Shown one piece after another: positions 36,207 through 51,295 of a stretch of DNA of 52,312 bases. The stretch is from Pseudanabaena cinerea FACHB-1277. Its GTDB lineage: Bacteria > Cyanobacteriota > Cyanobacteriia > Pseudanabaenales > Pseudanabaenaceae. The DNA is taken from the NCBI RefSeq assembly GCF_014696345.1, contig NZ_JACJPY010000026.1:1-52312 (forward strand), in the 5' to 3' direction. Made by a program: the position numbers and the translations under genes. The stretch's first letter is position 1; each line of letters opens with the position of its first letter. The notes under the pieces were generated by a model, which had not been told where the DNA came from, ran no database searches, and worked only from the letters and a program-made list of their open reading frames with translations.

Positions 36207-37793
36207 CTACTTGGATTCACCGAATGCAGATCCTACAATAGTTTTTTTTGTTGACTGTTTAACATCAGGTTGTATCAACTTTTCTTCTTCTACTTGTGAA
36301 TTAATAAATGCTGAGCCTAATTTTTTCTGCTTCTGCATAGTTTGTTCATCAGCATTGGATTTGTTTTGGGGAACTTCTGGAATCTCATTATTTACACATT
36401 GAGTATCTGTATTATCCATGTTGCCCATGTCAAGATCAGATGATGATATTCTTGCAGTCTCCTCGGATAGAATTTGACCAAAAGCGTTACCAAGCTTTTT
36501 AGGAGAGGGTTTAGGTTTTGTTAAGTCTGGCGCGATCGCAAATTCAGCCACAACTCTAATGTCAGATGTTAAGGCGATCGTAAAAGGAGTTTTGGCAACA
36601 TTAATGTCACCTTTCCAGCGACTAAAGCGCCATTTGTCGGAAATGCTCCAAGCATTAATCTCTACAGATGTCCCCAGAGGGTGATCACCAGCACCGCTAA
36701 CTCTTACAAATTCTTGGGCTTCAGATGGATATATCTCAATTTGGATGGAGCCGCGTAATTTTGGTATTTTCTTATATCGAGCGGTTATTTTTAAACTTTT
36801 CTCAATCACTAGATCAAGGCTGTTGTTAGATTGCACAATATCGCCGTCCCAGCCGATAAATTCCCAGTCAGGGAGAGCGATCGCTTTGACATTAACTTGT
36901 CTTCCTTCAGCATATTTACCACCGCCTTCGACCCTACCAGCTTCTGGTGGATCTAGTTCGATTTCTAGAATATGCTTGGGAATAATGCCGCCGCTAGTTT
37001 GAGGTTCTAGTTTAATCTCGGTTTCAATTACTTCGCTCAAGTTTGCATTGTCATTAATTTCTGTCGAATTGGCAAAGGCATCCGTTAGAGCTTTTTTCAG
37101 TTCTTCAAAGAGGTTACGCATACGTTTAAATCGTTGATTGCGATCGGGGTTGGTTGCTTGGAGATACCATGCTGAGGTACAAATATTCGGGAACCAGTAA
37201 GCGATGGTTTTGGCAAAAGCGTAAGTATCAATTGTGTCTTTGGATTTTTGGGCTGAGTTAGCGTCGGTTATTTCGGGGGGCAGAAAATCGCCACAATCTT
37301 TGATGGCGTTTTCATTGCCTTGCATCAGAAATGGCGCGTAGCCAAAGCCGCTTAAATAAACTTTGTTGTCTTTGAGAATAAAACTTTTGGGATTGATTTG
37401 TCCATGAATTAATTTTTTATTGTTGACAATGTGCAGTAGTTCGGAAGCTTCAGATAAGTACTTTAAAGTCAAATCAAGGTCAATATCTTTAGACAAGTCT
37501 AAAGTAATGCCAAAAGATTCTGGATAAATGATTAAGGGTAAATCATTGTTTGAAATAACTTGTTCTGGGGGGATAATTCCTTCGCGGCGAATATTTTTAA
37601 GCGCGTCAAAGTAATCAAATACTTCTTTGATTTGTCCTTTTTGGCATTCATTTAAAAGAACTTGAATGGTATGAGCTTTTTGTGTTTTTAAATTCACTGC
37701 TCCGATCCATTGATATAGATGAGTTTCTTTCAGAGCTTTGATTAGCTCATATTTTCCTGCGATCGTTTGTCCGATTTTGATTTGGTTTTGCAT
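36207..37793 (-). CDS. Pseudokinase with two InlB-repeat-like domains
   Basis: 528 residues from ATG ([17 protein letters not shown]). Residues about 14-245 follow the Ser/Thr kinase fold (YELIKAL start, [11 protein letters not shown] loop, [26 protein letters not shown]), but the catalytic residues are lost: no Gly-rich loop, Gln44 where the VAIK Lys is expected, H130-G-Q132 for HRD, and G149-F-G for DFG. Residues about 275-345 and 348-420 are two InlB B-repeat-like domains ([27 protein letters not shown]). The acidic tail carries three short G-[NS]-A-F motifs at about 435, 493 and 521. It is probably a scaffold for the upstream chaperone genes, which end the same operon. No membrane segment. 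Confidence 0.85.
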
Positions 37794-37801
37794 AGTAAAT
37801 A
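37758..37801. repeat. 44-bp direct repeat, copy at the pseudokinase start
   Basis: This stretch covers the start codon and first twelve codons of the pseudokinase plus the upstream leader. It recurs at 38352-38395 with a single mismatch. Confidence 0.9.
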
Positions 37802-37865
37802 TATCCCTGATAAAGATTGATACCAGTATAAACAACGCCGATTAGGGGCGGCTCTTGGTGGTGTG

Positions 37866-38327
37866 TTACTGCTCCCAAAAATCAACATTAATCATCGTGT
37901 CGATATCACGCCCGAACTGCCATGTATCAGGAAACTTAACAAGCTTATATCCCTTTTCCTTACGGATTTCTTCAAGAGCATCAACAAAAGCTTCATCAAA
38001 TACTTCAGTGAAATAATTTTTGAGGCTAGGAGAGAATTTAAGCGCCCGTTTCAGTCGTTTTCTTTGTTCACGAATTGTATTCTCCCAGCCATTAAACTCT
38101 TGAGGCATATCTACAAACATCCGCTTGAGTAAATGCTCTAAGAGAGTAGCCAAACGGTTATATATTTCGCTCCTTTCAGATGTTCCCAAACTCTCAATTT
38201 CCTCGATTAGATTCTCTAAATCCACATGGTCAAAATCTTTCATCTTTAACTTTTCTGTCGTTTCTTGTACCCATTGGTAAAAGTCACGATCATACAAGGT
38301 TGTTTTTGATGCAATCGTTATCGTCAT
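37866..38327 (-). CDS. DUF29 family protein
   Basis: 153 residues from the ATG ending at 38327, which has GGAG nine bases upstream. TLYDRDFYQWVQETTEKLK, LENLIEEIESLGTSER and LLEHLLKRMF are hallmarks of DUF29, a helical family very abundant in cyanobacteria and of unknown function, often found as single genes that move between loci. It sits between membrane-protein and pseudokinase genes of the chaperone operon and is bracketed by copies of the pseudokinase gene start, so it looks like a later insertion. Confidence 0.92.
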   Translation of the reverse strand: MTITIASKTTLYDRDFYQWVQETTEKLKMKDFDHVDLENLIEEIESLGTSERSEIYNRLATLLEHLLKRMFVDMPQEFNGWENTIREQRKRLKRALKFSPSLKNYFTEVFDEAFVDALEEIRKEKGYKLVKFPDTWQFGRDIDTMINVDFWEQ

Positions 38328-38351
38328 GTATTTTTGCTCCTTTGTTATTGG

Positions 38352-38395
38352 TGCGATCGTTTGTCCGATTTTGATTTGGTTTTTCATAGTAAATA
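38352..38395. repeat. 44-bp direct repeat, orphan copy of the pseudokinase start
   Basis: It matches 37758-37801 at 43 of 44 positions, including the start codon ending at 38387 and codons reading [12 protein letters not shown]. The frame then runs into the DUF29 leader, so this is a relic of a second pseudokinase copy or a target duplication. Confidence 0.9.
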
Positions 38396-38428
38396 GAGTA
38401 AATAGATTTTAAGTGATTTTATAGTTGA

Positions 38429-39328
38429 TTAGTTTCTCACATATACTTCCAATTTATACTTGGTCGGTTGATTGTATACTTTGAAAGTATATGTTCCAGC
38501 CGAAGAAGTTGTAAAATCGACAGCATCGGGTCTTGAGGTAGCTCTGCCAGAACTTGCTATTAGGCTATTGTTAGGATTCAAGATATGAAGATCACCATCA
38601 GCAGTCATTCCAGACAAGTATGCCTGAACATTTTTCCCAGCTCCAATATGCACTGTGTAACTCTTACTTGTTTGTGTAGTTGTTAACTCATCACTCCATA
38701 ATTCATATTGGACGTTGGAGGATGCTAAGCTATTTCGTATCTTATTGGTATTTTCACGATCAGATGTTATATCGTCTAGCTTGTTATTGACACTAATTTG
38801 GGCGGATGTAAGCGCTCTCAGTTTTTCTTTTGTACTAGATTGTTCTTTTGTTAAAGATTCAATTTTTTGATTTAGACCAGACATTGATCCATCAAGTTTT
38901 TCCTTCATCTTGTTTTGTTCTTTAGTCAGCAATTCGATTTTTTGATCGAGACTTTTGCTCTCAGAAACAATAGTAGAACCTGTTTTTTGTTCGGTTTTAT
39001 TTATTCTGTCAATTATTATGTAAAGACATACAGTAGTGAAAATAGATAATAATAAAATGACTCCACTAAGAATTGTAAGCCGATCTATAGGTTTGGCGAC
39101 TTTTTTGAAATGAGCAGTGATGGTAAGATTTCTATCCAAAACTATAGAAAAAGTTGGCTTAGGATCAGATCTATCACCGCTCCATTTTACAAATTCCCAG
39201 TCCTCAAAAGCAGTTGCATTAACGTGAACTTCTTTCCCTTCAGCATATTTTCCTGCACCGTCAACTTTCCCAGATGTGGGGGGATCGATGATGATTTTGA
39301 GTTCATATTTTGGTGTAATTCCAGTCAT
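38429..39328 (-). CDS. Membrane protein: InlB-like domain, one helix, coiled coil, beta domain
   Basis: 299 residues. Residues about 7-77 are an InlB B-repeat-like module (KYELKIIIDPP, GKVDGAGKYAEGK, DWEFVKWSGD), nearly the same as in the 212-residue neighbour and related to the pseudokinase repeats. One membrane helix spans about 84-106. Then a coiled coil at about 125-195 contains two related blocks (KIELLTKEQNKMKEKL, KIESLTKEQSSTKEKL). The last 95 residues are beta-rich (SYTVHIGAGKNVQAYLSG, GTYTFKVYN), like the C-terminal pre-peptidase-type sandwich domains. No signal peptide precedes the first domain, so the InlB module is probably cytoplasmic. Confidence 0.75.
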   Translation of the reverse strand: MTGITPKYELKIIIDPPTSGKVDGAGKYAEGKEVHVNATAFEDWEFVKWSGDRSDPKPTFSIVLDRNLTITAHFKKVAKPIDRLTILSGVILLLSIFTTVCLYIIIDRINKTEQKTGSTIVSESKSLDQKIELLTKEQNKMKEKLDGSMSGLNQKIESLTKEQSSTKEKLRALTSAQISVNNKLDDITSDRENTNKIRNSLASSNVQYELWSDELTTTQTSKSYTVHIGAGKNVQAYLSGMTADGDLHILNPNNSLIASSGRATSRPDAVDFTTSSAGTYTFKVYNQPTKYKLEVYVRN

Positions 39329-39378
39329 AAGTTTATTACTAGTTACTAGTGTTCGATTATGTAATTGTGAATATAAAG

Positions 39379-39669
39379 CTAGGCATAGCCAAAAGAATCG
39401 TCCCAGAGATCGCCATTTATTTCGACAGTGAAAGTGACATTTTGGTATGTATCGACTTTGGATATCACCATAATATCCAATGATTCAGCTTTTAGCTGGT
39501 GGTAAGTCTGTAATTTTGATTGTACCAATTGTTGTCCAGACTTAATGTACATTTTGTAAAGCTTTGATTTATCATCGGAGAAACTCGGTAGATCTTCCTT
39601 CACATGGTTTGTCTTTGATACTTTTCTCAAGAGTTTTAATTTTTTCATTGCTAACTCTAATTTCTTCAT
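39379..39669 (-). pseudogene. Remnant of an Hsp70 C-terminus
   Basis: The frame encodes about 65 residues that align with the end of the Hsp70 at 40254-41747: FSDDKSKLYKMYIKSGQQ against FTNDTDNLTSLDINVYQG, and FTVEINGDLWDDSFGYA against VTVEVDGDRWGDSFGYA. The ATPase domain is absent. Its 5' part overlaps, in another frame, the 3' end of the 212-residue membrane-protein gene, so an Hsp70 tail has been joined to that gene by a deletion. Translation as a separate protein from the ATG ending at 39669 is possible but unlikely to be useful. Confidence 0.7.
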
Positions 39670-40210
39670 TTAGTTTCTTCTTTTCTCCTTCTAGTACTTT
39701 TTTATCATCTTCCAATGTATTTTTTGTCTCATTTAGTTTTTTGTTTTCTCCCTCTATTACTTTTTTACCATCTTCTAATATGTTTTTTGCCTCATTTAGT
39801 TTCTTGTTTTCCTCATTTAGTATCTGATTTTGTTTCTTCAGTTCATTTTTATCTCTTTCAAGTGAATTGATATTTTGAATAAGATTACTTTTTTCCGTAC
39901 TGTAAATATAGACAACAATAGCAGAAAGAAAAAAGAAAGAAATTAAAGATATGGTAACAAGTGCGGTGGATGGTTTAAAAATTTTCTCGAAAGTAGCAGT
40001 AGCGGTCATATCTTTTTCTATCACAAAAGAAAAGCTCTTTTTAGAATGAGACCAGTCTCCAACCCAGCCGATAAATTTCCAGCCACCAAAAGCAGTTACC
40101 TCAACTTGAACATCTTTGCCTTCAGCATATTTTCCTGCGCCATCAACTTTCCCAGCCATAGGTGGATCGATGATGATTTTTAGTTCATATTTTGGGGTGA
40201 TTCCAGCCAT
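39572..40210 (-). CDS. Membrane protein: InlB-like domain, one helix, coiled-coil repeats
   Basis: 212 residues. The InlB B-repeat-like module at about 7-77 and membrane helix at about 82-103 match the 299-residue paralogue downstream. After the helix comes a long coiled coil built of 21-residue units (KKLNEAKNILEDGKKVIEGE, KKLNETKNTLEDDKKVLEGE, then a diverged one). The C-terminal beta domain of the paralogue is missing: the frame ends soon after the coiled coil, where an Hsp70 tail remnant begins in another frame. It looks like the truncated half of a tandem duplication. The region is AT-rich and lacks full GCGATCGC sites, unlike its surroundings. Confidence 0.7.
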   Translation of the reverse strand: MAGITPKYELKIIIDPPMAGKVDGAGKYAEGKDVQVEVTAFGGWKFIGWVGDWSHSKKSFSFVIEKDMTATATFEKIFKPSTALVTISLISFFFLSAIVVYIYSTEKSNLIQNINSLERDKNELKKQNQILNEENKKLNEAKNILEDGKKVIEGENKKLNETKNTLEDDKKVLEGEKKKLNEEIRVSNEKIKTLEKSIKDKPCEGRSTEFLR

Positions 40211-40253
40211 AGGTTTGACATGAGTGTTTGATCAAGTAATTGTGAAAATAAAT

Positions 40254-41747
40254 CTAGGCATAGCCAAAAGAATCACCCCAGCGATCGCCATCAACCTCGA
40301 CAGTAACAGATAGATTCTGCTCTCTATCGACTTTAAATGTTACCCATATTTCTAACTCTTCTGCTTTACGTTCAGGCAAATCAGATACTTTTAGAGTACC
40401 AATCTTGGTATTATCTATGACAAAAGGCGATGATCCTTGGTAAACATTTATATCAAGAGATGTCAAATTATCTGTATCGTTTGTAAACAACTGACGCTGT
40501 TCCCAAGGAGTGGGCTGGTTAGCCGAGATTAGTTCAATGAAGCGACCTCCCGCAGCCTCAATGCCAAGAGCGTGACAAGTGCGAGTTCTTACCTCGATCT
40601 CGTGACCAAAGATTTCAGGATCGTCCAAATAAGCGGCATACATGGCGGCTCCTTCTGCCACACAAAGCGAAGGATTGATATTGCCATATACTTTTTCCTT
40701 ACCGATTCGCTCGCAAACTAGAGCTTGCATACAGGGAATGCGACTAGAGCCACCCACAAGAATAACACGGTGAATGTCAGGAGGACTTAAATTTGAAATT
40801 GCCCAAAGCTTCTCCACGATCGCACCTATTTTCTGGGTATAAATCTGAATCGACTCTTCAAATTCTTGGCGACTAACCTTGATGTCAATATGCTGTCCTG
40901 GTAATACATCAGGAACTGTGACAAACGTATCATTAGCTTGAGACAAGGTAATTTTTGCCTCGATCGCCTGTTCTAAGATTTTGCGACGGGCTTTCCTTTC
41001 ATCAAGTTTCGTTAAGCCAGTCAAGCTAATATCGCTCTTCTCTAAAATCAGGTTATACAAGCATTCATCAAAGTCCATTCCCCCTAAGCGATCGTCTCCT
41101 CCTGTGGCAAGTACTTCAAATAGTAATTTTTTGGGTGCTTGATGTAAACAAAACAGAGTTAGGTCGAAAGTACCGCCCCCAAGATCGAAAACTAGAATAT
41201 TTTGTTTGATTTCTTGATCGGGACGCTCTTGGACAAGTTGCCACGCATAAGCAAGAGAGGCAGCGATCGGCTCTGGAATTAGACTAATACAATTGATGTC
41301 AGCGATTTCGGCGGCTTTGCGGGTATGTTCACATTGATGAGCTTTGAAATAGTATGGATGGGCTACAACTGTCGCACGACTTTTAAACTTACCACCGCCA
41401 AATTGTTGGACAACATCTTGATATAACTCTTTTAAAATCATCGCCGATAGGTCAATCGGTGAAAAGTCTTTGCCGCCAATTGAGATGATTTCAGAGGCAT
41501 CATCCATTTTTCTCTTGACACCGATAGCCACGTTTTCAGGATCGACAAGCCCCTTGTTATAGGCAAGCTTACCAACTAAAATTTCTGAAGTTCTCGGATC
41601 GCAATATACCACTGACTGGAGGGTATCTCCAGACTTGCTGTGTTGGTAATGACGTGGTTCGCGTTTTTTGTCATGCCAACGGGCGATCGCGCTAAAAGTT
41701 GTACCTAGATCAATACCAACAACTGGATTTAGCTCATTGTCTGCCAT
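40254..41747 (-). CDS. Lid-less Hsp70 (DnaK-like), fourth in the operon
   Basis: 497 residues against about 635 for DnaK. The nucleotide-binding motifs are intact: GIDLGTTFS (11-19), VFDLGGGTFDL (about 185-195) and LVGGSSRIP (about 325-333). A beta substrate-binding domain follows from about 385, then the chain stops at GDSFGYA: the helical lid and EEVD-type tail are absent. The interdomain linker (EIEVRTRTCHALGI) lacks the hydrophobic VLLLDV core of DnaK, suggesting altered allosteric coupling. It starts 33 bp after the GrpE-like gene and its tail is duplicated downstream at 39379. Confidence 0.9.
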   Translation of the reverse strand: MADNELNPVVGIDLGTTFSAIARWHDKKREPRHYQHSKSGDTLQSVVYCDPRTSEILVGKLAYNKGLVDPENVAIGVKRKMDDASEIISIGGKDFSPIDLSAMILKELYQDVVQQFGGGKFKSRATVVAHPYYFKAHQCEHTRKAAEIADINCISLIPEPIAASLAYAWQLVQERPDQEIKQNILVFDLGGGTFDLTLFCLHQAPKKLLFEVLATGGDDRLGGMDFDECLYNLILEKSDISLTGLTKLDERKARRKILEQAIEAKITLSQANDTFVTVPDVLPGQHIDIKVSRQEFEESIQIYTQKIGAIVEKLWAISNLSPPDIHRVILVGGSSRIPCMQALVCERIGKEKVYGNINPSLCVAEGAAMYAAYLDDPEIFGHEIEVRTRTCHALGIEAAGGRFIELISANQPTPWEQRQLFTNDTDNLTSLDINVYQGSSPFVIDNTKIGTLKVSDLPERKAEELEIWVTFKVDREQNLSVTVEVDGDRWGDSFGYA

Positions 41748-41780
41748 ATTTTCAAGTCTCCTCTCTGGATTGTTTGATAA

Positions 41781-43190
41781 CTATTTATTCTTAACGGCGA
41801 CAACAAGAGCAGTACGCAATAGCACTGTTTCCTTCTCTGGCTGTTTTTCTAGTTGATACTGATATTCGTACCCCTTTCTGACAAGTGCCTTCACTGATTC
41901 ATTGGGTAGTTGGGGATCTGTTTCTGTGGTGAAAGGTTCATGGCGCAAAAAGTCTACGGGTTGACCTTTTTCCACATTCATTGGTTTAACGCCTAGTTTT
42001 TTCAGAGCAGACAACAAAATCTCTCTCAAATCTGCATAGGTTCTTAGCCATTCGGAAAGCTTTGGAGCTTGATTAGGATGGCTACTGCTTACGTCAGAAA
42101 CCAAATTTTTGGCATGGAGTTCGCCATCATCAATGCCATCAAGGGCAGGCAGAATCTTTTTGTCGATAAAGTTTACCCATTGTTTTTGTAACTTCTCCGC
42201 CAAATTTCGCCATTCCCGAACTGGTTGATACCTTGCGTCACCAATTTCTCTGATTCTTCGGTCAAGCATCTGTTTTGCCTGTTTAGCATCAGTTTGAGAT
42301 CGCACCAAATTCAATAGCTCCAATTGTTGCACTTGGATTAACTCCGATGATGGTAATTGGCAAGTCGTCAGTGAATTCAGTGATTCGGTCAAACGTTCTA
42401 GCATTCGTTTAACTGTTTCAAGTCCACTGTAGCGACTTTTCAAATCATCTTGATAGGATCGAGAAAGAGATGATTCAAATTCTTTCATCATAGTTCCGCA
42501 TTGAGTAATGCGATCGCAACAGCAAGAAATCGCCAGCGACATCTCTGATGACAAATCCTGATTTTTAGAATGCCAATAGTTTACTTTTTCTTGATACTGT
42601 TCAAAGTCATTCAGATCTTCCTTAAAACTCTCAGCGTCTTGTTCTAGAGCGCTAATCACTAAATCCTCGAACTGAAACCTTGTGATCTCTTCCAGTTTAC
42701 TCAAACGCCCCTTGACTAGATTTAACTCAGAAGTCAGATCCTCAATCTGAGACCTCGTGATCCCTTCAAGTTTATTCAAACTCTCATTTGTTTGATTCAA
42801 ATCATCATTTTGCTTGTTGTACCTGTCTAGAAGTTGCTTATACGATTTGAAAAGCTTATTGATGTTATCGCGATCCTCATTGATAGCTCTAACCAAATCA
42901 TCTGTAGACAAGCTGTAAGTGGACTTGGGCTGTATATCAGCGTTATTACTGGATTCACCAGCACTTACTTGACTGTTGGCAGAAGTTGCTAACTCGACAT
43001 CATTGGATGAAGATCTCGTTACTTCTTCAGGCGTGATATCTTGCCCTGTTTCAGGAGATTCTGGAGAACTAACATCCACCGCAGCATTTTCGGTTTGTAC
43101 TGCATCTGGTGTAAGAGACTCTTCTTTTTTTGCCTCATCGTTAAGCTCTTGCTGCAAGTCAATATTGGGCGTTGTTACTTCTGTACTCAT
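41781..43190 (-). CDS. Long coiled-coil protein with GrpE-like C-terminal domain
   Basis: 469 residues; TAGGAG precedes the ATG. The N-terminal 80 residues are acidic and Ser/Thr-rich. Residues about 85-245 and parts of 270-350 are predicted coiled coil (SLNKLEGITRSQIEDLTSEL). The C-terminal 80 residues resemble GrpE: LREILLSALKKLGVKPM, then RHEPFTTETD, VKALVRKGYEYQ and LLRTALVVAVK, matching GrpE's L-x-x-G-v-xx-i, (H)EA, V-x-x-(L/V)-xx-GY and R-xx-x-V-x-V pattern. GrpE dimerises by long helices and opens the Hsp70 nucleotide cleft; lying between two Hsp70 genes, this is the likely dedicated exchange factor. GrpE assignment is by eye. Confidence 0.65.
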   Translation of the reverse strand: MSTEVTTPNIDLQQELNDEAKKEESLTPDAVQTENAAVDVSSPESPETGQDITPEEVTRSSSNDVELATSANSQVSAGESSNNADIQPKSTYSLSTDDLVRAINEDRDNINKLFKSYKQLLDRYNKQNDDLNQTNESLNKLEGITRSQIEDLTSELNLVKGRLSKLEEITRFQFEDLVISALEQDAESFKEDLNDFEQYQEKVNYWHSKNQDLSSEMSLAISCCCDRITQCGTMMKEFESSLSRSYQDDLKSRYSGLETVKRMLERLTESLNSLTTCQLPSSELIQVQQLELLNLVRSQTDAKQAKQMLDRRIREIGDARYQPVREWRNLAEKLQKQWVNFIDKKILPALDGIDDGELHAKNLVSDVSSSHPNQAPKLSEWLRTYADLREILLSALKKLGVKPMNVEKGQPVDFLRHEPFTTETDPQLPNESVKALVRKGYEYQYQLEKQPEKETVLLRTALVVAVKNK

Positions 43191-43220
43191 GGTTGTATGT
43201 TCTCCTATGATTAGTTTAAG

Positions 43221-44789
43221 TTAAGACCGCTTGATTTCCAAAGCACCGCCAACACCTGAAGTTGATTCAGCCTTTACCTTGAGTAAATTTTGCTGATTCA
43301 GTTCAAAGGTGATCGTGACAATTTCTTGTCCTTTGGGCTTGGGTGGAATCTTAGTAATTAGGAATTCACCAATACAAGTTACGCCTTCTTCGTAGACAAA
43401 TTCTTTCTCATCGCTAGACTGAAAAACACTAATCCGCATTTCAGTTTGATTATCACGCTGAGTCGAATAATCCTTACTGATACAAAGAGGCTCGTCCGTA
43501 GGAATTTCTAAACCTTTGGTGATTACCTTGTTGAAACGGCGATCACGTGTTTCGATGCCCAGATTTAGGGTGACAATGTTGTCGATTACCAATGAGCTAT
43601 CAAGCTGGGGCTTAACATCAGGATCATCTGGCACACTCAAAGTTGCGGCAAAGCTGGCGGCTCCTGCTGCCACAACCGTATCGGGATCGATATCACCATA
43701 GGGTTCTTTGCCAAAAATTTCCGTCAACATTTCTCTAACTAATGGCACTCTTGTAGAGCCACCCACCAAAATAATCCGTGAAATGTCATCAATGGTTAAA
43801 GCTGCACTTGCCATCGCTTTTTCCACTGCCTCCTTAGACTGGAACAACAAAGGATAAATTGCCACATTAAATTCACTGCGCTCAATCTCAATCTCCAGAT
43901 TATGTACAGTTCCAGACTCATCCTTAATTAGGCTAGGGATCTCCATTACGGCTTTGAGGGATTCGGTCAACTCACATTTAGCATTTTCAGCTTTTTCTTT
44001 AAGCTTTTGTTGAGCATCCCGCAACACTTTTTTAGAGATTCCCTGATCCTTTTTGAGATCGAGCAGATCAATTCCTGATGTCTCTTGAAATCTTGTTGCG
44101 GCAATTTTCATGATTTCATAGTCAAAGTCATCGCCGCCTAATTTTTGGACACCCTCTTTTGCCAAAATCTTAAACTTAGCCAGTCCATCACCCGTGGAAT
44201 CCACCCGCAAAATCGATACGTCAAATGTGCCTCCACCCAGATCGTAAATCAGGATGGTTTGATCGCGGTCTTTTTCGAGGGCATAGGCGATCGCTGCTGC
44301 TACGGGTTCTTCGATCAGACTGACAACTTCTAAATGGGCAAGTTTAGCTGCGTCAATGGTGGCGGTTTTTTGGTTGTCGTCAAAATTGGCAGGAATACAA
44401 ATCACAGCATAGCGAGGCGTACCTTGCAAGATATCCATACTGGTTTGCTGTGCGCCATTGACCAGTTTGGAGAGAATCTCTGCCGAAATCTCAGTCGCTG
44501 TATATTCTTTTCCTGGGCGGTTAGGAAATTCTTTTCTCCATTCGCTACCAATCTCACGCTTGATGGAAGAAACTGTGTTGTCTGGATCGAGAAGCAGTCG
44601 CGATCGCGCTTGTTTACCCACTAATGTGGTGTCGTTGTCCACAATACTTACCACAGAGGGCAAAGTGTTACGACCATCATCAACCTTGAGGATTTCGGCT
44701 TTTCCTTTTTGGTAAACGGCGATCGCCGAGTTAGAAGTACCTAAATCGATGCCGACAATGTATGTGCTGTTCTTTTCAACTAAAGCCAT
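43221..44789 (-). CDS. Lid-less Hsp70, third in the operon
   Basis: 522 residues, with GAGGAAAT before the ATG. Intact ATPase motifs: GIDLGTSNSAIAVY (from about 14), IYDLGGGTFDVSIL (about 180) and ILVGGSTRVPLVREML (about 335). Of the four it is closest to ordinary DnaK, with the typical KLGGDDFD and PVAAAIAYAL segments. The beta substrate domain ends at about residue 522 with LLKVKAESTSGVGGALEIK, so the alpha-helical lid is missing. The linker around SSLVIDNIVTLNLGIETR is not the classical one. It begins 109 bp after the Hsp70-amidotransferase-like gene. Confidence 0.93.
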   Translation of the reverse strand: MALVEKNSTYIVGIDLGTSNSAIAVYQKGKAEILKVDDGRNTLPSVVSIVDNDTTLVGKQARSRLLLDPDNTVSSIKREIGSEWRKEFPNRPGKEYTATEISAEILSKLVNGAQQTSMDILQGTPRYAVICIPANFDDNQKTATIDAAKLAHLEVVSLIEEPVAAAIAYALEKDRDQTILIYDLGGGTFDVSILRVDSTGDGLAKFKILAKEGVQKLGGDDFDYEIMKIAATRFQETSGIDLLDLKKDQGISKKVLRDAQQKLKEKAENAKCELTESLKAVMEIPSLIKDESGTVHNLEIEIERSEFNVAIYPLLFQSKEAVEKAMASAALTIDDISRIILVGGSTRVPLVREMLTEIFGKEPYGDIDPDTVVAAGAASFAATLSVPDDPDVKPQLDSSLVIDNIVTLNLGIETRDRRFNKVITKGLEIPTDEPLCISKDYSTQRDNQTEMRISVFQSSDEKEFVYEEGVTCIGEFLITKIPPKPKGQEIVTITFELNQQNLLKVKAESTSGVGGALEIKRS

Positions 44790-44830
44790 GAGAATTTCCT
44801 CGTTTTTAAGATTAGTGTTTGAGATTCGGG

Positions 44831-44977
44831 TTAATTAGTTAAAGCTAAATTGGTGATTTCGACAGCGATGCTGTCTAGCAAACTGCCAAAATTGTGTTTT
44901 ACCTCCAAAATCTCTCGTAATTTACTAGCCAACCTGCGGCATTCTTGATATACCTGCCAGTTCCAGCCGTATCCCAT
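44831..44977 (-). CDS. Possible 48-codon overlapping ORF
   Basis: An ATG at 44977 opens a frame different from that of the Hsp70 fusion gene whose 3' end it overlaps, and it runs 66 bp past that gene's stop. The translation (WQVYQECRRLASKLREILEV, then NFGSLLDSIAVEITNLALTN) has a helical, protein-like composition. No clear ribosome site precedes it. It may be chance, or the relic of a gene lost from the 109-bp gap. Confidence 0.2.
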   Translation of the reverse strand: MGYGWNWQVYQECRRLASKLREILEVKHNFGSLLDSIAVEITNLALTN

Positions 44978-47208
44978 TTGTAAAAGAGTCTTGTAAAACC
45001 ACCATCAATAATTGCGCGTTTTCCATCTTGATCGTAAATAGAGGTCACAATATTATTGGCAGATCCATAAACTAAGGGCTGCAATTGATGATTTGATTGG
45101 ACAGTTGCAACTGTTACTCCTTCATAGAGATATTCAAGCCCTGTAGTAATTAAGTGACTTATAAATCCTGCACCAGAGCTATCAGGTTTGTTTTGAGGCT
45201 TTAACACTTGATCTCCTGCCGCATTCCCGTGCATTCCACATCCAAAAATTCCATTCGACACGTAATTTGCATCAGCATAATAGGGATCATTGTCTCCCCA
45301 AATATAAAGTCCTCTACCACTATCAAAAAAGTTGCGAATTTCCTGAAGATGCTGGGCATTCAATAACTGAGTTGTATTAGAAATTACCCATAGTTGACAA
45401 GATTCATCAAGAACTCGCGCAAAGTCATTAATTGTTGGAACACTTGTCCAACGATGAATTTTAAAACCTTTTTCTTTTAGTGCCGATTCAGGCAATTTAA
45501 AATCGAAGTTCTCACCTGTATATAGATGTAATACGGCAATGAGACAATCATCAAAAGCGTTGTTTGCCACTAAGTCATATTGTGATCCCAAAGCATTACC
45601 GTACTGATCGGTAATCGCCCCAGGAATACGTTGTTGACCAGCATGAACAGTATATGGAGACTGCACATTATCTTGTGAATCGATGTTGCCAGTAAGCCAA
45701 GACATATCATTTGGGCTGTCAGGTATTGCCTCAATAGTGAGTGGTAAAGTTTTACCTGTAGATTTCTCTGTAGCACTAACCGTAATGATGCCACTACGAT
45801 CATAGCCATATTCAATCTCAATTCTCGCTGGGATTCCTAGTACATGAGTAATATTGGAAAATATGTATTTCCCTAAAATCAGACATTGGGCGGGATCTTC
45901 ACTCTCTCCCTGCAACATATAGACATCAAGTTGATTGTTCTGATTTTTCCGCGTTCGCAGTTGATAAGGCTTTGATTTTACACAAGGAACTGGACTATTT
46001 TTCGGAATGATGATGCTGTTTATCAACCGAGAACGATCATCTCCTCTATATGCACAAACACCTAAGCTAAAGGGAGTGATGTTGTGAAACTCAATTGGCA
46101 CTATATCTTCTTCAGGAGAAGATAATCCACCAGCCACGATCGCTGCACCCTGCGCCACAACTTCATCAACCCGATCCGAAATAAACGGATCTTTGATGGT
46201 TTCAGCAATGCGCGATCGCACTAACTTATTGCGCGTAGAACCACCCACTAAAATCACGCGATCGATGTCATCAGGGTTTAACTTGGAGGCTTTGAGAACA
46301 GCACGGGTTTTTGTAATGGTGCGATCGACTAATGGCGCGATCAAACGATTGTAGGTATCAATCGTAATTCCTTCATCTAAGGCAACGCCCAAAATTTCAG
46401 GGATTGTGATTTGAGTACGATTGCTTTGGGATAGCTCAATCTTGGCTTTTTCGGCAGCCTCTTTGAGTCGCTGCTTGGCAACTAAAATTTCGTGTGGTGT
46501 CCCTAACCCTTTAGTTTTACTTTTATCAAGAAAGCTCTCAAGATCAAACTGCGATCGCCTTTTGAGAATGCTAATCAGATACTCAACCAACACCAAATCA
46601 AAATCATCACCACCGAGGTTAAAGTCACCATCAACAGCGATCGCCTGAAAACGATTGCCCTTAACCGATAAAACCGATACATCAAAAGTACCGCCGCCCA
46701 AGTCATACACTAAAAGCGTTTGATCCTTGCCACGATCCAATCCATAACTAATCGCCGCCGCCGTTGGTTCGGGTAGTAATTGCAGAACCTTAAAACCTGC
46801 CGCTTCACCTGCCAGTTTGGTATCCCGTTTCTGATTGTTATTAAAATAAGCAGGAACCGTAATCACTGCCTCAGACACTGATTCTCCCAGATATTTCTCG
46901 GCAGCCGTTTTCAGTTGTTTCAATACGGTGGCAGCAGCATCCATAGGCGTATAGATTTTATTACCAATTTGCCACTGGGTTTTGCCATCACCGATATAAC
47001 GTTTTGCCGAAGTGATGGACTGTTCTGGTTCCAACTCGGCTCTCTTTTTGGCTGACTGCCCCACGAGCAATGCGCCATCAGGTCGCACCGAAAGAGCCGA
47101 AGGCATCGTGGCACGTCCATCTATAGGAATTGTTTCAACAGTACCCCGCCGCCAGACACAAGCGACAGAGTTAGTTGTCCCAAGATCGATCCCAATTGAA
47201 TAACCCAT
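44899..47208 (-). CDS. Hsp70 fused to a glutamine-amidotransferase-like domain
   Basis: 769 residues. Residues 1-365 are an Hsp70 ATPase (GIDLGTTNSVACVW, VYDLGGGTFDVSVL at about 165, ILVGGSTRNKLVR at about 315), and about 370-495 a beta substrate domain ending in ITVSATEKSTGKTL. In place of the lid there is a linker and a domain of about 240 residues with alternating strands and helices (DDCLIAVLHLYTG, CQLWVISNTTQLLNAQHLQE, IRNFFDSGRGLYIWGDND), resembling class-I glutamine-amidotransferase/ThuA-like folds. The elbow has Asp-Asn-Asp but no Cys, so amidase activity is not expected; a ligand-sensing or structural role is more likely. Such a fusion is unusual. Starts 31 bp after the preceding Hsp70. 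Confidence 0.8.
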   Translation of the reverse strand: MGYSIGIDLGTTNSVACVWRRGTVETIPIDGRATMPSALSVRPDGALLVGQSAKKRAELEPEQSITSAKRYIGDGKTQWQIGNKIYTPMDAAATVLKQLKTAAEKYLGESVSEAVITVPAYFNNNQKRDTKLAGEAAGFKVLQLLPEPTAAAISYGLDRGKDQTLLVYDLGGGTFDVSVLSVKGNRFQAIAVDGDFNLGGDDFDLVLVEYLISILKRRSQFDLESFLDKSKTKGLGTPHEILVAKQRLKEAAEKAKIELSQSNRTQITIPEILGVALDEGITIDTYNRLIAPLVDRTITKTRAVLKASKLNPDDIDRVILVGGSTRNKLVRSRIAETIKDPFISDRVDEVVAQGAAIVAGGLSSPEEDIVPIEFHNITPFSLGVCAYRGDDRSRLINSIIIPKNSPVPCVKSKPYQLRTRKNQNNQLDVYMLQGESEDPAQCLILGKYIFSNITHVLGIPARIEIEYGYDRSGIITVSATEKSTGKTLPLTIEAIPDSPNDMSWLTGNIDSQDNVQSPYTVHAGQQRIPGAITDQYGNALGSQYDLVANNAFDDCLIAVLHLYTGENFDFKLPESALKEKGFKIHRWTSVPTINDFARVLDESCQLWVISNTTQLLNAQHLQEIRNFFDSGRGLYIWGDNDPYYADANYVSNGIFGCGMHGNAAGDQVLKPQNKPDSSGAGFISHLITTGLEYLYEGVTVATVQSNHQLQPLVYGSANNIVTSIYDQDGKRAIIDGGFTRLFYKWDTAGTGRYIKNAAGWLVNYERFWR

Positions 47209-47239
47209 ATTTGTACCTTTTAGTTTCTATCCCAATCAA

Positions 47240-48781
47240 CTATTTTTTAGTCACACCACTATCAATCGTTGTTGAGCGCTCCTTAGCTTCACCACTGGCA
47301 ATCAACGCCTTGGTTGCCCCTATATCTAAACTACCATCATGATCGCCAGCATAGCTGAGAATAGGAGCAACGGAACTAGTAAGCGGAAACTGCACTGCCG
47401 TAAAGTGGATGATTCCGTCAGCATCAAGGGCAAAAACTGCTCCAACAGGCACATAATCGTTTTGCGGTGGTGAAACAGGCAGCATTAGTTCACCTAAGTT
47501 AGTATTGCGATCAGGATTCTTATTCTCACCACGCTGCACCCGCAATCTTACTTGTTCTTGATGAGGCACACCCGTAAATCCTAAAACTCCTAATTCACAG
47601 GGATAAGTAGTTTGACGAGGAATTACAGGCTGGAAAATTTCCGTTGAATCATCTTGCATGATGATTCCAAGAGAATGACTGGTTTTCTCAGATACATCAA
47701 TGTCCACAGAATCAGGAGCATAAAGACTTGAAGCCATGATTGCTGCTCCATGCGCGACAACTTCATCAACCCGTTCTGATGTAAATGGCTCTTTGATTTC
47801 ACGGGTCACAATTTCGCGCACAGCCCGATTTTTCGTTGAGCCACCAACGAGAATCACCCGATCGATATCATCCGCAGAAAGTTTGGCATCGCGTAGCACC
47901 GATTTCATACATTCCACTGTACTCAACAGCATCGGCTCAATCAACTTGTTGTATTGCGCCAACGTAATTTCCAATTCAATCGGATGTCCCAAACAATCAG
48001 GAATCGCAATCACAGCCCGATCGCTTTGAGATAGTTCGATCTTGGCAGTTTCCGCAGCTTCTTTGAGACGTTGCCTAGCTGACATAGCCGCCTTACCTTT
48101 TTCGGATAGTAAATCTATCCCTGTCTTCGCTTTAAAATCCTTGCTAGTCCACTCAGCGATCGCATTGTCAAAATCATCACCACCCAGATTACCATTACCA
48201 CCAACGGCTTTCACCGTAAACTTGTTACCTGTAACTGACAAAATTGATACATCAAACGTACCGCCACCCAAGTCATAAACCATCAACGTTTGATCTTTCT
48301 CTTTGTCCAGTCCATAGGCGATCGCCGCCGCCGTTGGTTCAGGCAAAAGACGTAACACATTTAAACCCGCCTCTTCACCTGCCCGTTTGGTATCTTCCTT
48401 CTGATCTTCGGTGAAATACGCAGGTACTGTGATCACAGCATCCCAAATCTCAGCGTTGCCAAGTTCTTTTCTGGCACTCTCAACCAAACGCTTGAGGATC
48501 AGACTGGCAATATTGACAGGTGAGAGAGAATTGCCAGCTAGTTTATAGCTTTTACTGCGATCGCCCATAAATCGCTTGGTCGAAGCAACGGTATTTTCAG
48601 GATCGAGCAGCAATCGTGACTTAGCAGGTTGCCCCACCAAAATGTTTGTATCATCGCGAAAAGAAACCACTGAAGGCATGGTGGAACGTCCATCAATGCG
48701 TAAAGTCTCAGCACTGCCACGGCGATAAATAGCGATAACTGAGTTTGTCGTACCTAGATCGATGCCAACTGCGTATGTCAT
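47240..48781 (-). CDS. Lid-less Hsp70, first in the operon
   Basis: 513 residues from the ATG ending at 48781 (MTYAVGIDLGTTNSV); a GTG four codons upstream is an alternative. ATPase motifs are intact: GIDLGTTNS, VYDLGGGTFDVSIL (about 165-178), NGNLGGDDFD and ILVGGSTKNRAVREI. The substrate-binding beta domain (about 375-475) includes VRLRVQRGENKNPD and FALDADGIIHFTAV; a short Ser/Gly-rich tail replaces the helical lid. The linker region VDIDVSEKTSHSLGI lacks the hydrophobic core of DnaK. It starts 54 bp after the protease gene. Confidence 0.92.
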   Translation of the reverse strand: MTYAVGIDLGTTNSVIAIYRRGSAETLRIDGRSTMPSVVSFRDDTNILVGQPAKSRLLLDPENTVASTKRFMGDRSKSYKLAGNSLSPVNIASLILKRLVESARKELGNAEIWDAVITVPAYFTEDQKEDTKRAGEEAGLNVLRLLPEPTAAAIAYGLDKEKDQTLMVYDLGGGTFDVSILSVTGNKFTVKAVGGNGNLGGDDFDNAIAEWTSKDFKAKTGIDLLSEKGKAAMSARQRLKEAAETAKIELSQSDRAVIAIPDCLGHPIELEITLAQYNKLIEPMLLSTVECMKSVLRDAKLSADDIDRVILVGGSTKNRAVREIVTREIKEPFTSERVDEVVAHGAAIMASSLYAPDSVDIDVSEKTSHSLGIIMQDDSTEIFQPVIPRQTTYPCELGVLGFTGVPHQEQVRLRVQRGENKNPDRNTNLGELMLPVSPPQNDYVPVGAVFALDADGIIHFTAVQFPLTSSVAPILSYAGDHDGSLDIGATKALIASGEAKERSTTIDSGVTKK

Positions 48782-48835
48782 GTTTTTAATCACTCACTAA
48801 ATAAATTAACTAGATTTTGAAAATTGAGTCTCAAA

Positions 48836-49417
48836 CTAAAGTGCTTTAAACCGTTGCGACCTGTTTATAGGAATACGCATTTGGGCGGCAAAGGCAAATA
48901 TATGTTGCAAAGCAATTCCAAAGCCCAACCCTTGCCCACCTTCTAAGATCTGATTAGCAACGCCGATCACTTCTCCCTGTTCATTTACCAGTGGTCCGCC
49001 ACTGTTCCCAGGATTTAGGGAAACATCGGTTTGCAATAGGCTTACACCACTGCGAACTCGTTGGCGATTGCTGATAATGCCACGAGACAAGGTAAAATCT
49101 AGCCCTAGGGGATGACCTAACGCATATACAGTTTGACCTTCGCAGATCGTAGCAGGATCAGCAAAAGTTAAAGGCGGCTCAGCTAGAGCCTCAGCGTAAA
49201 GTATTGCCAAGTCACAGGTTTCATCTTTGCCAAGAATCTCCACAGATCGGCGATCGCCATGTTCAGAAATTACTTGAAAGCGATCGCCCACCAGTACATG
49301 AGCGCAGGTGAGGATATGCCCCTGATTGCTAACGACAAAACCAGTCCCATTGCCAGCATTCGATTGAACTTTGAGAATTGAAACTTTAATACTCTGAATA
49401 ATATTTTCTAAGCTCAT
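48836..49417 (-). CDS. Cytosolic trypsin-like (HtrA-type, S1C) serine protease
   Basis: 193 residues. The catalytic triad is complete: His40 in LTCAHVLVG, Asp69 in CDLAILY and Ser139 in NPGNSGGPLV. The protein has only the protease domain, with neither a signal peptide nor a PDZ domain, so it is expected to be cytoplasmic, unlike HtrA/Deg enzymes of the periplasm. Its ATG overlaps the stop of the preceding VWA gene by 4 bp (49414-49417), a sign of translational coupling. Proteolysis of a client or of a partner in the VWA/Hsp70 system is inferred. Confidence 0.92.
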   Translation of the reverse strand: MSLENIIQSIKVSILKVQSNAGNGTGFVVSNQGHILTCAHVLVGDRFQVISEHGDRRSVEILGKDETCDLAILYAEALAEPPLTFADPATICEGQTVYALGHPLGLDFTLSRGIISNRQRVRSGVSLLQTDVSLNPGNSGGPLVNEQGEVIGVANQILEGGQGLGFGIALQHIFAFAAQMRIPINRSQRFKAL

Positions 49418-50340
49418 GATCCTGTTTCTCCATCACTAGATGCACTGGCCAGTAAAGACTGACGGATTCTTTGTCCTGCTACTTCCAATTCAAAAAACGA
49501 TGAACTGTCACGCATCAAGAAACTAACCCGCCCTGGCAAGCCATCCGTAAATTGCTTAATCACAGTATTCTGATCGTCATAAATAGCAGCAGTAGGAGCC
49601 ACCATCACCGATTCATCCACTAATTCCGCAAAAATATCGGTTGTCTCGCGCATATCTTTGGCAACATGGTAATCCCATAGATCAAATCCTGTCACCGCAT
49701 CAAGATTGTCCAGATCTTGCAATTGACGAGCGTTCACTTTTTCACCGATTCCAATCAATACACATTTAATTGGATTACGCTTACCTGATGTAATTTGCTT
49801 AGCTAGGTCAATGCAATATTCCTTTACAGCCCAAAAGTCATCGATTTTACCATCGGTGACAAATAAATAGATGCCATTAGTTGCATCAGGAAATCCTTCC
49901 ACAAAATAACGCAAAGCTGGTAAAAGATTGGTCATAGAGCCGAAATCAGCTTCTACTGGTCCTTCGATTTTCAGCGTATCACATTGTGAAACTTGGATAT
50001 TTCCCAATACCTCAAGCTCTTTACTACCACTGCAAGCCCAGTAAATTGTCGTCGTTTGACCATCAGCATCTAGGCGATCAGCAAGGTAGTAGAGAAACTT
50101 TCGCGCTTCCATCTCTACTAAGTTTTCTGTTGGTTTTGATGATTTGCCATAGGCGGCTCGCATCGAACTACTCGCATCAAGAGCCACACCAGTTTTCCAA
50201 CCTTCACTAATCCGAGGCATCAAAATCGTGAAGGTTACTTCGACATCAGAACCAATATTTTGATAAAAAACCTTACCAAAAACGGGGTCAATGTCAGAAC
50301 TAGATAATGTGACTCTTTCAGTAGAATTTAAAACATTCAT
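49414..50340 (-). CDS. VWA domain protein, third copy
   Basis: 308 residues from the ATG ending at 50340. The MIDAS metal site is present: D55-A-S-S-S (DxSxS), a Thr in FGSMTNLLPALRYF, and VTDGKIDD. The C-terminal 60 residues (AAIYDDQNTVIKQF, PGRVSFLMRDSSSFFELEVA) repeat the small beta domain of its two upstream paralogues but with low identity. No membrane helix or signal peptide. It starts 7 bp after the second VWA gene and overlaps the protease gene by 4 bp, so the three are tightly coupled. Confidence 0.9.
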   Translation of the reverse strand: MNVLNSTERVTLSSSDIDPVFGKVFYQNIGSDVEVTFTILMPRISEGWKTGVALDASSSMRAAYGKSSKPTENLVEMEARKFLYYLADRLDADGQTTTIYWACSGSKELEVLGNIQVSQCDTLKIEGPVEADFGSMTNLLPALRYFVEGFPDATNGIYLFVTDGKIDDFWAVKEYCIDLAKQITSGKRNPIKCVLIGIGEKVNARQLQDLDNLDAVTGFDLWDYHVAKDMRETTDIFAELVDESVMVAPTAAIYDDQNTVIKQFTDGLPGRVSFLMRDSSSFFELEVAGQRIRQSLLASASSDGETGS

Positions 50341-50347
50341 CTTGTAC

Positions 50348-51235: not shown

Positions 51236-51295
51236 ATTTTTGTTCTTGGTTAATTTTTTACAAAAAAACTCAATCTGTTGATTGAGATAAATCAG

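What the first reader, a model, noticed from the sequence alone, without database searches (positions are those of the whole stretch)
41781..43190. Divergent GrpE hidden at the end of a 469-residue coiled-coil protein
The last 80 residues follow the GrpE beta-domain pattern (LLSALKKLGVKPM, RHEPFTTETD, VRKGYEYQ, LLRTALVVAVK) and the preceding helices could dimerise like GrpE. Placement between two Hsp70 genes supports a dedicated exchange factor. The very long N-terminal extension is unlike ordinary GrpE.
Basis: partly seen in the sequence, partly recalled or inferred. Interest (0 to 1): 0.75.

Follow-up and report, generated by a model that had tools for sequence, protein, structure and literature searches.

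The report
Private GrpE for a lidless Hsp70
A cyanobacterium carries, inside a mobile cluster of four unusual Hsp70 chaperone genes, an oversized and fast-changing version of the chaperone reset factor GrpE, and sequence marks suggest that it serves just one of those four chaperones.

Summary
The gene is real but on the minus strand (41781-43190, 469 aa). It is a divergent GrpE: Pfam GrpE 32.9 bits against a cut-off of 25.8, both full-length relatives also over it, a wing-only profile above all 900 shuffles, and a low-confidence model of residues 288-469 whose six best PDB matches are GrpE structures. The GrpE part is about residues 289-469, not just the last 80; before it lie about 95 acidic, probably disordered residues and about 180 of predicted long helix. 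Of the four Hsp70s in the cluster only the upstream neighbour (43221-44789) keeps the subdomain-IIB hairpin with the 'GrpE signature' that GrpE binds in DnaK. At other cyanobacterial loci 30 of 33 Hsp70s near an extra GrpE keep this hairpin, against 3 of 22 non-canonical Hsp70s in single-GrpE genomes; among the 8 least remote of these it is 3 of 8, and the loci are not independent. Best reading: a dedicated exchange factor for that Hsp70, the extension a scaffold or tether (inferred). Full-length relatives were found in two other genomes; the cluster moves horizontally, and this GrpE diverges far more than its neighbours. Exchange activity is untested. New variant of a known kind.

The parts
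41781..43190 (-). Long GrpE gene, 469 aa, ATG start preceded by AGGAG
   Evidence: ORF; Pfam GrpE 32.9 bits over cut-off 25.8; upstream sequence
42909..43190 (-). Residues 1-94: acidic (net charge -15 over residues 1-95), low-confidence, probably disordered tail
   Evidence: pLDDT under 50; composition
42369..42905 (-). Residues 96-274: long helices ahead of the GrpE part (96-241, 244-274)
   Evidence: predicted model
41997..42326 (-). Residues 289-398: GrpE stalk and bundle helices with the ILPALD motif
   Evidence: model; alignment with E. coli GrpE; Pfam match begins at residue 304
41784..41996 (-). Residues 399-469: GrpE beta-wing
   Evidence: wing-only HMM 19.7 bits, best of 900 shuffles 5.9; strands in the model
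43221..44789 (-). Hsp70_3, proposed partner: lidless Hsp70, 522 aa, keeps the GrpE-signature hairpin
   Evidence: Pfam HSP70 to profile position 487 of 599; hairpin; no residues aligned to DnaK 508-605
43878..43961 (-). Hsp70_3 residues 277-304: equivalent of the DnaK IIB hairpin 276-302 (28 residues; DnaK has 27)
40254..41747 (-). Hsp70_4: lidless Hsp70, 497 aa, signature deleted (hairpin 23), both DnaK cleft salt bridges lost
44899..47208 (-). Hsp70_2: Hsp70 (Pfam match to profile position 499 of 599) with a further C-terminal part unlike that of its G012 relative (vWA there); signature deleted (hairpin 22)
47240..48793 (-). Hsp70_1: lidless Hsp70, 517 aa; signature deleted (hairpin 22)
48836..49417 (-). 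Trypsin-like peptidase
   Evidence: Pfam Trypsin_2, 112.9 bits
49414..52177 (-). Three related vWA-like genes (49414-50382, 50348-51235, 51296-52177)
   Evidence: the first two match the third as query; one sub-threshold vWA-TerF-like hit, 25.3 against 29.4 bits, and no hit for the other two
38429..40210 (-). Two InlB-repeat genes (39572-40210, 38429-39328), each with one hydrophobic stretch; the second ends in a PPC domain
37866..38387 (-). DUF29 protein
   Evidence: Pfam DUF29
36207..37835 (-). Protein with InlB-type repeats and a kinase-like N-terminus (kinase-like by eye only)
   Evidence: Pfam Flg_new_2, no kinase hit

Best explanation
The protein is a true but divergent GrpE that most likely works as the private nucleotide exchange factor of Hsp70_3, the lidless Hsp70 encoded just upstream. 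Its C-terminal 165-180 residues would dimerise through the stalk and bundle helices, grip the IIB hairpin of Hsp70_3, and push the wing into the nucleotide cleft to release ADP. The first 290 residues, an acidic tail plus long helices, would act as a tether or scaffold to other members of the cluster. Shown by computation: GrpE membership, domain layout (low-confidence model), neighbourhood, hairpin pattern. Inferred: dimer, contact, exchange activity, tether.
For: GrpE profile over cut-off here and in both full-length relatives, 46.9 and 40.3 bits. Wing-only and whole-profile scores far above 900 shuffles. C-terminal model built without canonical GrpE sequences: Foldseek ranks 1-6 and 8 are GrpE, GrpEL1 or GrpE-DnaK entries. 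Invariant with E. coli GrpE in a seven-row alignment: L96, D100, L131, D150, G177, R186. Segment DnaK 270-302: DnaK 33 residues, Hsp70_3 34, the other three 28-29, HscC 25, HscA 23; in DnaK this hairpin binds the GrpE helices and its deletion weakens binding (PMC10825016, passages), and the signature is deleted in HscA (PMC8215388, passages). In the own genome 5 of 11 Hsp70s have it: three canonical DnaKs, the Hsp70 of the short-GrpE locus, and Hsp70_3. Other loci: 30 of 33 Hsp70s within about 7 kb of an extra GrpE have it, against 3 of 22 non-canonical ones in single-GrpE genomes. The order Hsp70_3-GrpE-Hsp70_4 is the same in the three genomes with the gene, though Hsp70_3 is interrupted in G042.
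Against: No DnaJ hit among the 14 cluster genes, and DnaK residues R167 and D393 differ in Hsp70_3. Hairpin Y285, whose change weakens GrpE binding in DnaK (PMC10825016, passages), is not kept in Hsp70_3. GrpE G122 is threonine here (own canonical GrpE: serine). Between window and G012 the GrpE core is 50% identical while Hsp70_3 is 87.7%, which does not look like tight co-evolution. The contrast group is soft: 14 of its 22 members are remote Hsp70s, all short, and of the 8 nearer ones 3 have a full hairpin without a GrpE nearby. Three paired Hsp70s lack the hairpin (L143, L144, L153), as may a fourth (L193, weak GrpE-like neighbour). Models are weak (mean pLDDT 70 and 62; best GrpE E-value 0.08). 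NCBIfam GrpE models are far below cut-off (20.6 against 200).
Confidence: 0.7

Rival explanations
1. A GrpE fold without exchange activity: it has become a dimeric scaffold or regulator that holds the cluster's proteins together, and the wing is a relic.
For: The extension makes up about 60% of the protein; the GrpE core is only 50% identical between window and G012 while Hsp70_3 is 88%; Y285 of the hairpin and G122 of GrpE are not kept.
Against: The wing is still recognised by a wing-only profile in all three members, and D150, G177 and R186 are kept; the hairpin of Hsp70_3 is nearly identical in window and G012.
Confidence: 0.17
2. A general extra GrpE that serves the housekeeping DnaKs or all four cluster Hsp70s, and sits in the cluster by accident of operon building.
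For: Canonical DnaKs also have the hairpin; the downstream Hsp70_4 is as close as Hsp70_3.
Against: The genome has a canonical GrpE beside a canonical DnaK; three of four cluster Hsp70s have lost the signature; extra GrpEs that lie near an Hsp70 mostly lie near hairpin-bearing ones.
Confidence: 0.11
3. Not a GrpE: the match is a coiled-coil artefact.
For: Long helices can raise scores: in the own genome eight other frames match the GrpE profile below cut-off, and whole-model fold searches listed long-helix proteins and no GrpE.
Against: Those eight matches reach profile position 113 at most; this one runs to 154 and the wing alone stands out from shuffles; the best fold matches of the C-terminal part are GrpE.
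Confidence: 0.02

Closest known systems
Canonical bacterial GrpE (E. coli GrpE; own-genome GrpE on contig C24)
   Same: Stalk helix, bundle helix and beta-wing in that order; LLPxxD-type motif; wing D, G and R
   Different: About 290 extra N-terminal residues; 21% identity to E. coli GrpE over the C-terminal 204 residues; gene among non-canonical Hsp70 genes; a loop in the wing 10 residues longer than in E. coli
Myxococcus xanthus GrpS (Mxan_6672), a second GrpE whose locus number is next to that of the Hsp70 SglK (MXAN_6671)
   Same: An extra GrpE apparently beside an extra Hsp70 (PMC10313047 and PMC8265645, passages)
   Different: GrpS is reported dispensable; no cluster of four Hsp70s is mentioned in the passages seen; sequences were not compared here
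HSP70-GrpE variants of GAP1-N2 GTPase conflict systems (Kaur et al. 2020)
   Same: HSP70 with GrpE and sometimes a second HSP70 without its peptide-binding domain (PMC7159879, passages)
   Different: Reported there as predominantly actinobacterial and firmicute and centred on GTPases; no GTPase hit over cut-off among the genes tested here
Other extra cyanobacterial GrpEs (short type, some 3-5 kb from an Hsp70 in a frame of mostly 740-757 aa; 180-270 aa type, mostly next to an Hsp70 in a frame of 519-622 aa)
   Same: GrpE by Pfam near a hairpin-bearing non-canonical Hsp70
   Different: No extension of this length; none came out as a full-length relative in the A1 search

Membership tests
GrpE (PF01025) | Curated profile cut-off reached | tested here: met
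   32.9 against 25.8 bits; relatives 46.9 and 40.3
GrpE (PF01025) | C-terminal beta-wing present | tested here: met
   Wing-only HMM 19.7 bits, best of 900 shuffles 5.9; strands in the models, low confidence
GrpE (PF01025) | Stalk and bundle helices before the wing, fold like solved GrpE | tested here: inconclusive
   Helices 302-370 and 372-398; Foldseek ranks 1-6 are GrpE, GrpEL1 or GrpE-DnaK entries, but no E-value is better than 0.08; VIA Z 7.5 over 141 residues, tied with unrelated rows. Favourable, not decisive
GrpE (PF01025) | Homodimer | not testable with these tools
   No complex prediction on hand
GrpE (PF01025) | Speeds nucleotide exchange of an Hsp70 | not testable with these tools
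   Needs an assay
GrpE (PF01025) | A partner Hsp70 that has the GrpE-signature hairpin | tested here: met
   Hsp70_3, upstream neighbour, 34 residues where DnaK has 33; that they are partners is inferred
Canonical GrpE (NCBIfam equivalogs) | Equivalog cut-off reached | tested here: not met
   Best 20.6 bits against 200: not an ortholog-grade canonical GrpE
MoxR-vWA or GTPase conflict systems of Kaur et al. 2020 | MoxR AAA+ ATPase or TRAFAC GTPase in the locus | tested here: not met
   No such Pfam hit over cut-off among the 14 cluster genes tested, 36207-52177; the locus beyond 52312 was not seen
MoxR-vWA or GTPase conflict systems of Kaur et al. 2020 | Constant core with swapped effector domains | tested here: inconclusive
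   Hsp70_2 ends differently in window and G012 (23% over 173 aligned residues; vWA in G012), seen in one pair only

The most novel reading that the evidence does not exclude
The cluster is a mobile chaperone-based conflict system in which a hairpin-bearing lidless Hsp70 is the switch and the long GrpE is its fast-diverging adaptor: the tail and long helices recognise or recruit a changing partner, and the GrpE end converts that event into nucleotide exchange on Hsp70_3. GrpE would then be the variable, specificity-giving part of a defence or signalling machine rather than housekeeping.
Probability: 0.2. Interest if true: 0.8.

Novelty: new variant of a known kind. Interest (0 to 1): 0.5.

Why it matters
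A 2015 review states that eubacterial genomes encode only one exchange factor, GrpE (PMC4753570, passages). This genome has three GrpE genes over the Pfam cut-off, two of them at loci with non-canonical Hsp70s, and the only two non-canonical Hsp70s of the genome that keep the GrpE-signature hairpin lie at those two loci. If the rule holds, one hairpin tells which Hsp70 pairs with a GrpE, and swapping or deleting that hairpin tests it. The long form would be a natural case of a GrpE recruited as an adaptor.

Tried and rejected
Coiled-coil artefact: rejected by the wing-only profile and the shuffles; reversed copies scored 1.6 bits at most as whole sequences among the rows shown. The canonical set for that profile (E. 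coli plus 17 cyanobacterial) came mostly from genomes whose GrpE wing had matched alignment A1, so it leans a little towards this wing; Pfam does not. Whole-model fold searches listed long-helix proteins and no GrpE in the rows shown; the C-terminal part alone did find GrpE, while VIA rows of similar Z include unrelated helices. PDB sequence searches found no GrpE: the profile of A1 gave flagellins at E 0.02 or worse, the last 189 residues gave nothing. Plasmids: no tblastn match. PADLOC: one weak hit for this protein (LmuB, 14.8 bits). The genome-contig scan, by two exact peptide patterns, found one relative, Pseudanabaena sp. UBA1465. A pair of vWA genes found across the genus was looked at as a possible source of the cluster's vWA-like genes: in the own genome I saw no Hsp70 or GrpE by eye in the listing, in G001 a canonical dnaK and a J-domain-like gene lie beside it; not pursued.

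How the counts were made. Multi-GrpE genomes, about 78 of 291, is my hand count of the table. Of these I examined 48, holding 68 extra matches by my count; 65 regions were fetched, leaving out the two long relatives and G048. In 32 of the 65 no Hsp70 was found within about 7 kb, in several because the contig ends; these are not in the 33. In 19 of the 21 regions L145-L165 my own GrpE profile missed the gene, and I placed it by the Pfam coordinates. The contrast group comes from 87 genomes with one GrpE match (12, 30, 45; E limits 1e-20, 1e-40 and 1e-30, so remote Hsp70s are under-listed in the last two sets). From 26 non-canonical or broken places, four were left out: L166 and L189 (broken canonical DnaKs), a contig-edge fragment in G116 (not fetched) and L193, whose neighbour is a weak GrpE-like frame (20.4 bits) and whose hairpin is short. 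That leaves 22: 3 with a full hairpin (L167, L168, L191), of which L168 aligns poorly and L191 is a 351-aa frame. Nearer ones only (Pfam 180-700 bits): 3 full of 8. Fisher values are 7e-9 (all) and 0.003 (nearer ones); both overstate the case, since the 30 paired loci fall into about three Hsp70 types by eye.

Full report
What is there. The 469-aa ORF at 41781-43190 lies on the minus strand; the plus strand in that range is full of stops. It is flanked by Hsp70 genes 30 bp upstream (43221-44789) and 33 bp downstream (40254-41747), and two more Hsp70 genes follow upstream (44899-47208, 47240-48793), then a trypsin-like peptidase and three related vWA-like genes; downstream come two InlB-repeat proteins each with a hydrophobic stretch, a DUF29 protein and a further InlB-repeat protein. 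All these genes lie on the minus strand. Naming the host Pseudanabaena rests on a genus mate (G012), whose contig is recorded as Pseudanabaena sp. UBA1465.

GrpE identity. Pfam GrpE matches residues 304-446 at 32.9 bits, cut-off 25.8. The two full-length relatives match at 46.9 and 40.3 bits, up to the last profile position. In the own genome three frames exceed the cut-off: a canonical 254-aa GrpE (C24), a short 166-aa one (C35), and this one; eight further frames match below it, none past profile position 113. An HMM from E. coli and 17 cyanobacterial GrpEs gives 31.9, 24.0 and 18.0 bits for the three long proteins, and its wing part alone 19.7, 19.7 and 17.4, against best shuffles of 5.5 and 5.9 among 900. 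NCBIfam's GrpE equivalogs are not reached (20.6 against 200), so it is not a canonical GrpE.

Layout. A model from a three-row alignment shows residues 1-94 without confidence, helices 96-241 and 244-274, then 302-370 and 372-398, then strands 401-403, 433-438, 441-445, 454-459 and 462-467 (mean pLDDT 70, residues 407-435 under 50). A model of residues 288-469 alone is weaker (mean pLDDT 62), yet its Foldseek ranks 1-6 and 8 are GrpE, GrpEL1 or GrpE-DnaK entries, the best by TM-score 9blt_C and 9bls_C (0.49 by query, 0.55 by target, probability 0.97); no E-value is better than 0.08. VIA gives Z 7.5 over 141 and 139 residues for the same two entries, tied with unrelated helical rows. In an alignment of seven GrpEs including E. 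coli's, six columns are invariant: L96, D100, L131, D150, G177 and R186.

Which Hsp70 does it serve? In DnaK the hairpin 276-302 of subdomain IIB contacts the GrpE bundle helices, and Y285R or removal of 285-295 weakens binding (PMC10825016, passages read). Residues 290-295 are called the GrpE signature and are deleted in HscA, which has fast ADP release (PMC8215388, passages). Against E. coli DnaK, HscA and HscC the segment 270-302 counts 33 residues in DnaK, 34 in Hsp70_3 and its G012 ortholog, 29 in Hsp70_4 and its two orthologs, 28 in Hsp70_1 and Hsp70_2 and the one ortholog of each that was aligned, 25 in HscC and 23 in HscA. Hsp70_4 has also lost both DnaK cleft salt bridges, Hsp70_2 could form both, and Hsp70_1 and Hsp70_3 one. 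ATPase residues D8, K70, E171, D194 and T199 are kept in all four. Hsp70_1, Hsp70_3 and Hsp70_4 lack the helical lid (18, 0 and 5 residues aligned to DnaK 508-605); in Hsp70_2 the aligner places 86 residues there, but the Pfam HSP70 match stops at profile position 499 of 599, and its G012 relative has a vWA domain at that end. Of 11 Hsp70s in the own genome, five have a full-length hairpin: three canonical DnaKs, the Hsp70 of the C35 locus with the short GrpE, and Hsp70_3.

A wider test. In 291 cyanobacterial genomes 286 have a GrpE hit, and about 78 have two or more (hand count). I looked at 48 of the multi-GrpE genomes and at 65 of their 68 extra GrpE loci. Thirty-three have an Hsp70 within about 7 kb; in 30 the hairpin is full length (27-28 residues, DnaK 27) and in three it is short (L143, L144, L153) (recounted in 120). 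As a contrast I took non-canonical Hsp70s from 87 genomes with a single GrpE match: of 22, 19 have short hairpins (21-23 residues) and 3 full ones. Fourteen of the 22 are remote Hsp70s (Pfam 74-112 bits), all short; among the 8 nearer ones 5 are short and 3 full. So part of the contrast may be ancestry, and the loci fall into few Hsp70 types: this is support, not a clean statistic. Which places were left out is told under Tried and rejected. In the other 32 extra-GrpE loci no Hsp70 was found in range.

Spread and speed. Full-length relatives occur in G012 and G042 among 388 genomes searched in the class; the remaining 17 matches are 16 canonical GrpE wings and one coiled-coil match. A second search with the C-terminal part found only the own genome in 386; G012 and G042 would match by construction, so that sample evidently left them out. 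Canonical GrpE cores of own genome and G042 are 43% identical, yet Hsp70_1 is 88%, the trypsin-like protein 90% and a vWA-like protein 92%: the cluster has very likely moved horizontally. Between own genome and G012 the canonical GrpE core is 92% identical, Hsp70_3 87.7%, Hsp70_4 76%, DUF29 97%, but the long GrpE is 40% overall and 50% in its core. So the GrpE gene stands out as fast changing or replaced. In G042 an ISL3 transposase gene interrupts Hsp70_3, so that copy of the pair is broken.

How it most likely works. Shown here by sequence: GrpE membership, hairpin pattern, neighbourhood; domain order by low-confidence models. Inferred: the dimer, the grip on Hsp70_3, ADP release, and a tethering role of the first 290 residues. 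GrpE's disordered tails compete for the substrate groove of DnaK in E. coli (PMC12915176, passages), so a long tail acting on a lidless Hsp70 is plausible but untested. What the cluster is for is unknown; Kaur et al. (PMC7159879, outline and passages) describe conflict systems with Hsp70 and GrpE, but their MoxR or GTPase cores were not found in the genes tested here.

Against the reading. No DnaJ hit was found in the cluster genes, DnaK residues R167 and D393 are changed in Hsp70_3, Y285 is not kept, the GrpE core varies far more than its supposed partner, and some Hsp70s break the pairing rule in each direction. These leave room for a GrpE that has become a scaffold.

Print. In the held library, searches on extra or dedicated GrpE, on GrpE with vWA and trypsin, and on GrpE domain fusions gave no listed title or abstract start that describes this protein or a hairpin rule for extra cyanobacterial GrpEs; beyond listings only the passages named above were seen, lists were cut at 8-25 rows, and most subscription papers are missing. 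Myxococcus GrpS is a precedent for a second GrpE, apparently beside a second Hsp70 (PMC10313047, PMC8265645, passages). Nostoc punctiforme is reported with one GrpE (PMC9239167, passages).

Noticed in passing
L113:4197-7397 (G039): One 1067-aa frame holds a type II/IV secretion ATPase domain (PF00437, residues 487-874) and a GrpE domain (947-1061): a possible pilus-motor-type ATPase fused to GrpE.
   Followed up: partly
L102:6256-7395 (G138): A 380-aa frame with an FHA domain followed by GrpE.
   Followed up: no
L154:7075-7770, and similar-looking ends in most of L145-L165 (by eye): GrpE-like proteins without an Hsp70 found within about 7 kb in 20 of these 21 regions; the one tested with Pfam (L154) has an N-terminal Cro/C1-type HTH (PF13443) before GrpE. 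Perhaps a DNA-binding GrpE.
   Followed up: partly
L036 (own contig C35), 7710-14925: A 166-aa GrpE, a 126-aa protein with a sub-threshold DnaJ match (17.0 bits, cut-off 27.8), a 992-aa protein with sub-threshold TPR hits and a non-canonical Hsp70 (741-aa frame) some 4-5 kb from the GrpE: a second private chaperone set.
   Followed up: partly
window 44899-45711, end of Hsp70_2; compare L035:213-2327: The same Hsp70 gene ends differently in window (no Pfam hit there) and G012 (vWA, PF00092), 23% identical over 173 aligned residues.
   Followed up: partly
L033:13985-15151 (G042): ISL3-type transposase gene (PF01610) inside the Hsp70_3 gene of the G042 cluster.
   Followed up: no
L068:8149-14645 (G001): In G001 the vWA gene pair found across the genus lies beside a canonical dnaK and a gene that looks J-domain-like by eye, another vWA-Hsp70 neighbourhood.
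   Followed up: no
L187 and L188 (G123, G132): DnaK-like Hsp70s (Pfam 660 and 642 bits) that lack the GrpE-signature hairpin (22 and 21 residues) in single-GrpE genomes.
   Followed up: no
window 39379-39669: A 96-aa frame whose end resembles the C-terminus of Hsp70_4: perhaps a leftover of recombination (by eye).
   Followed up: no
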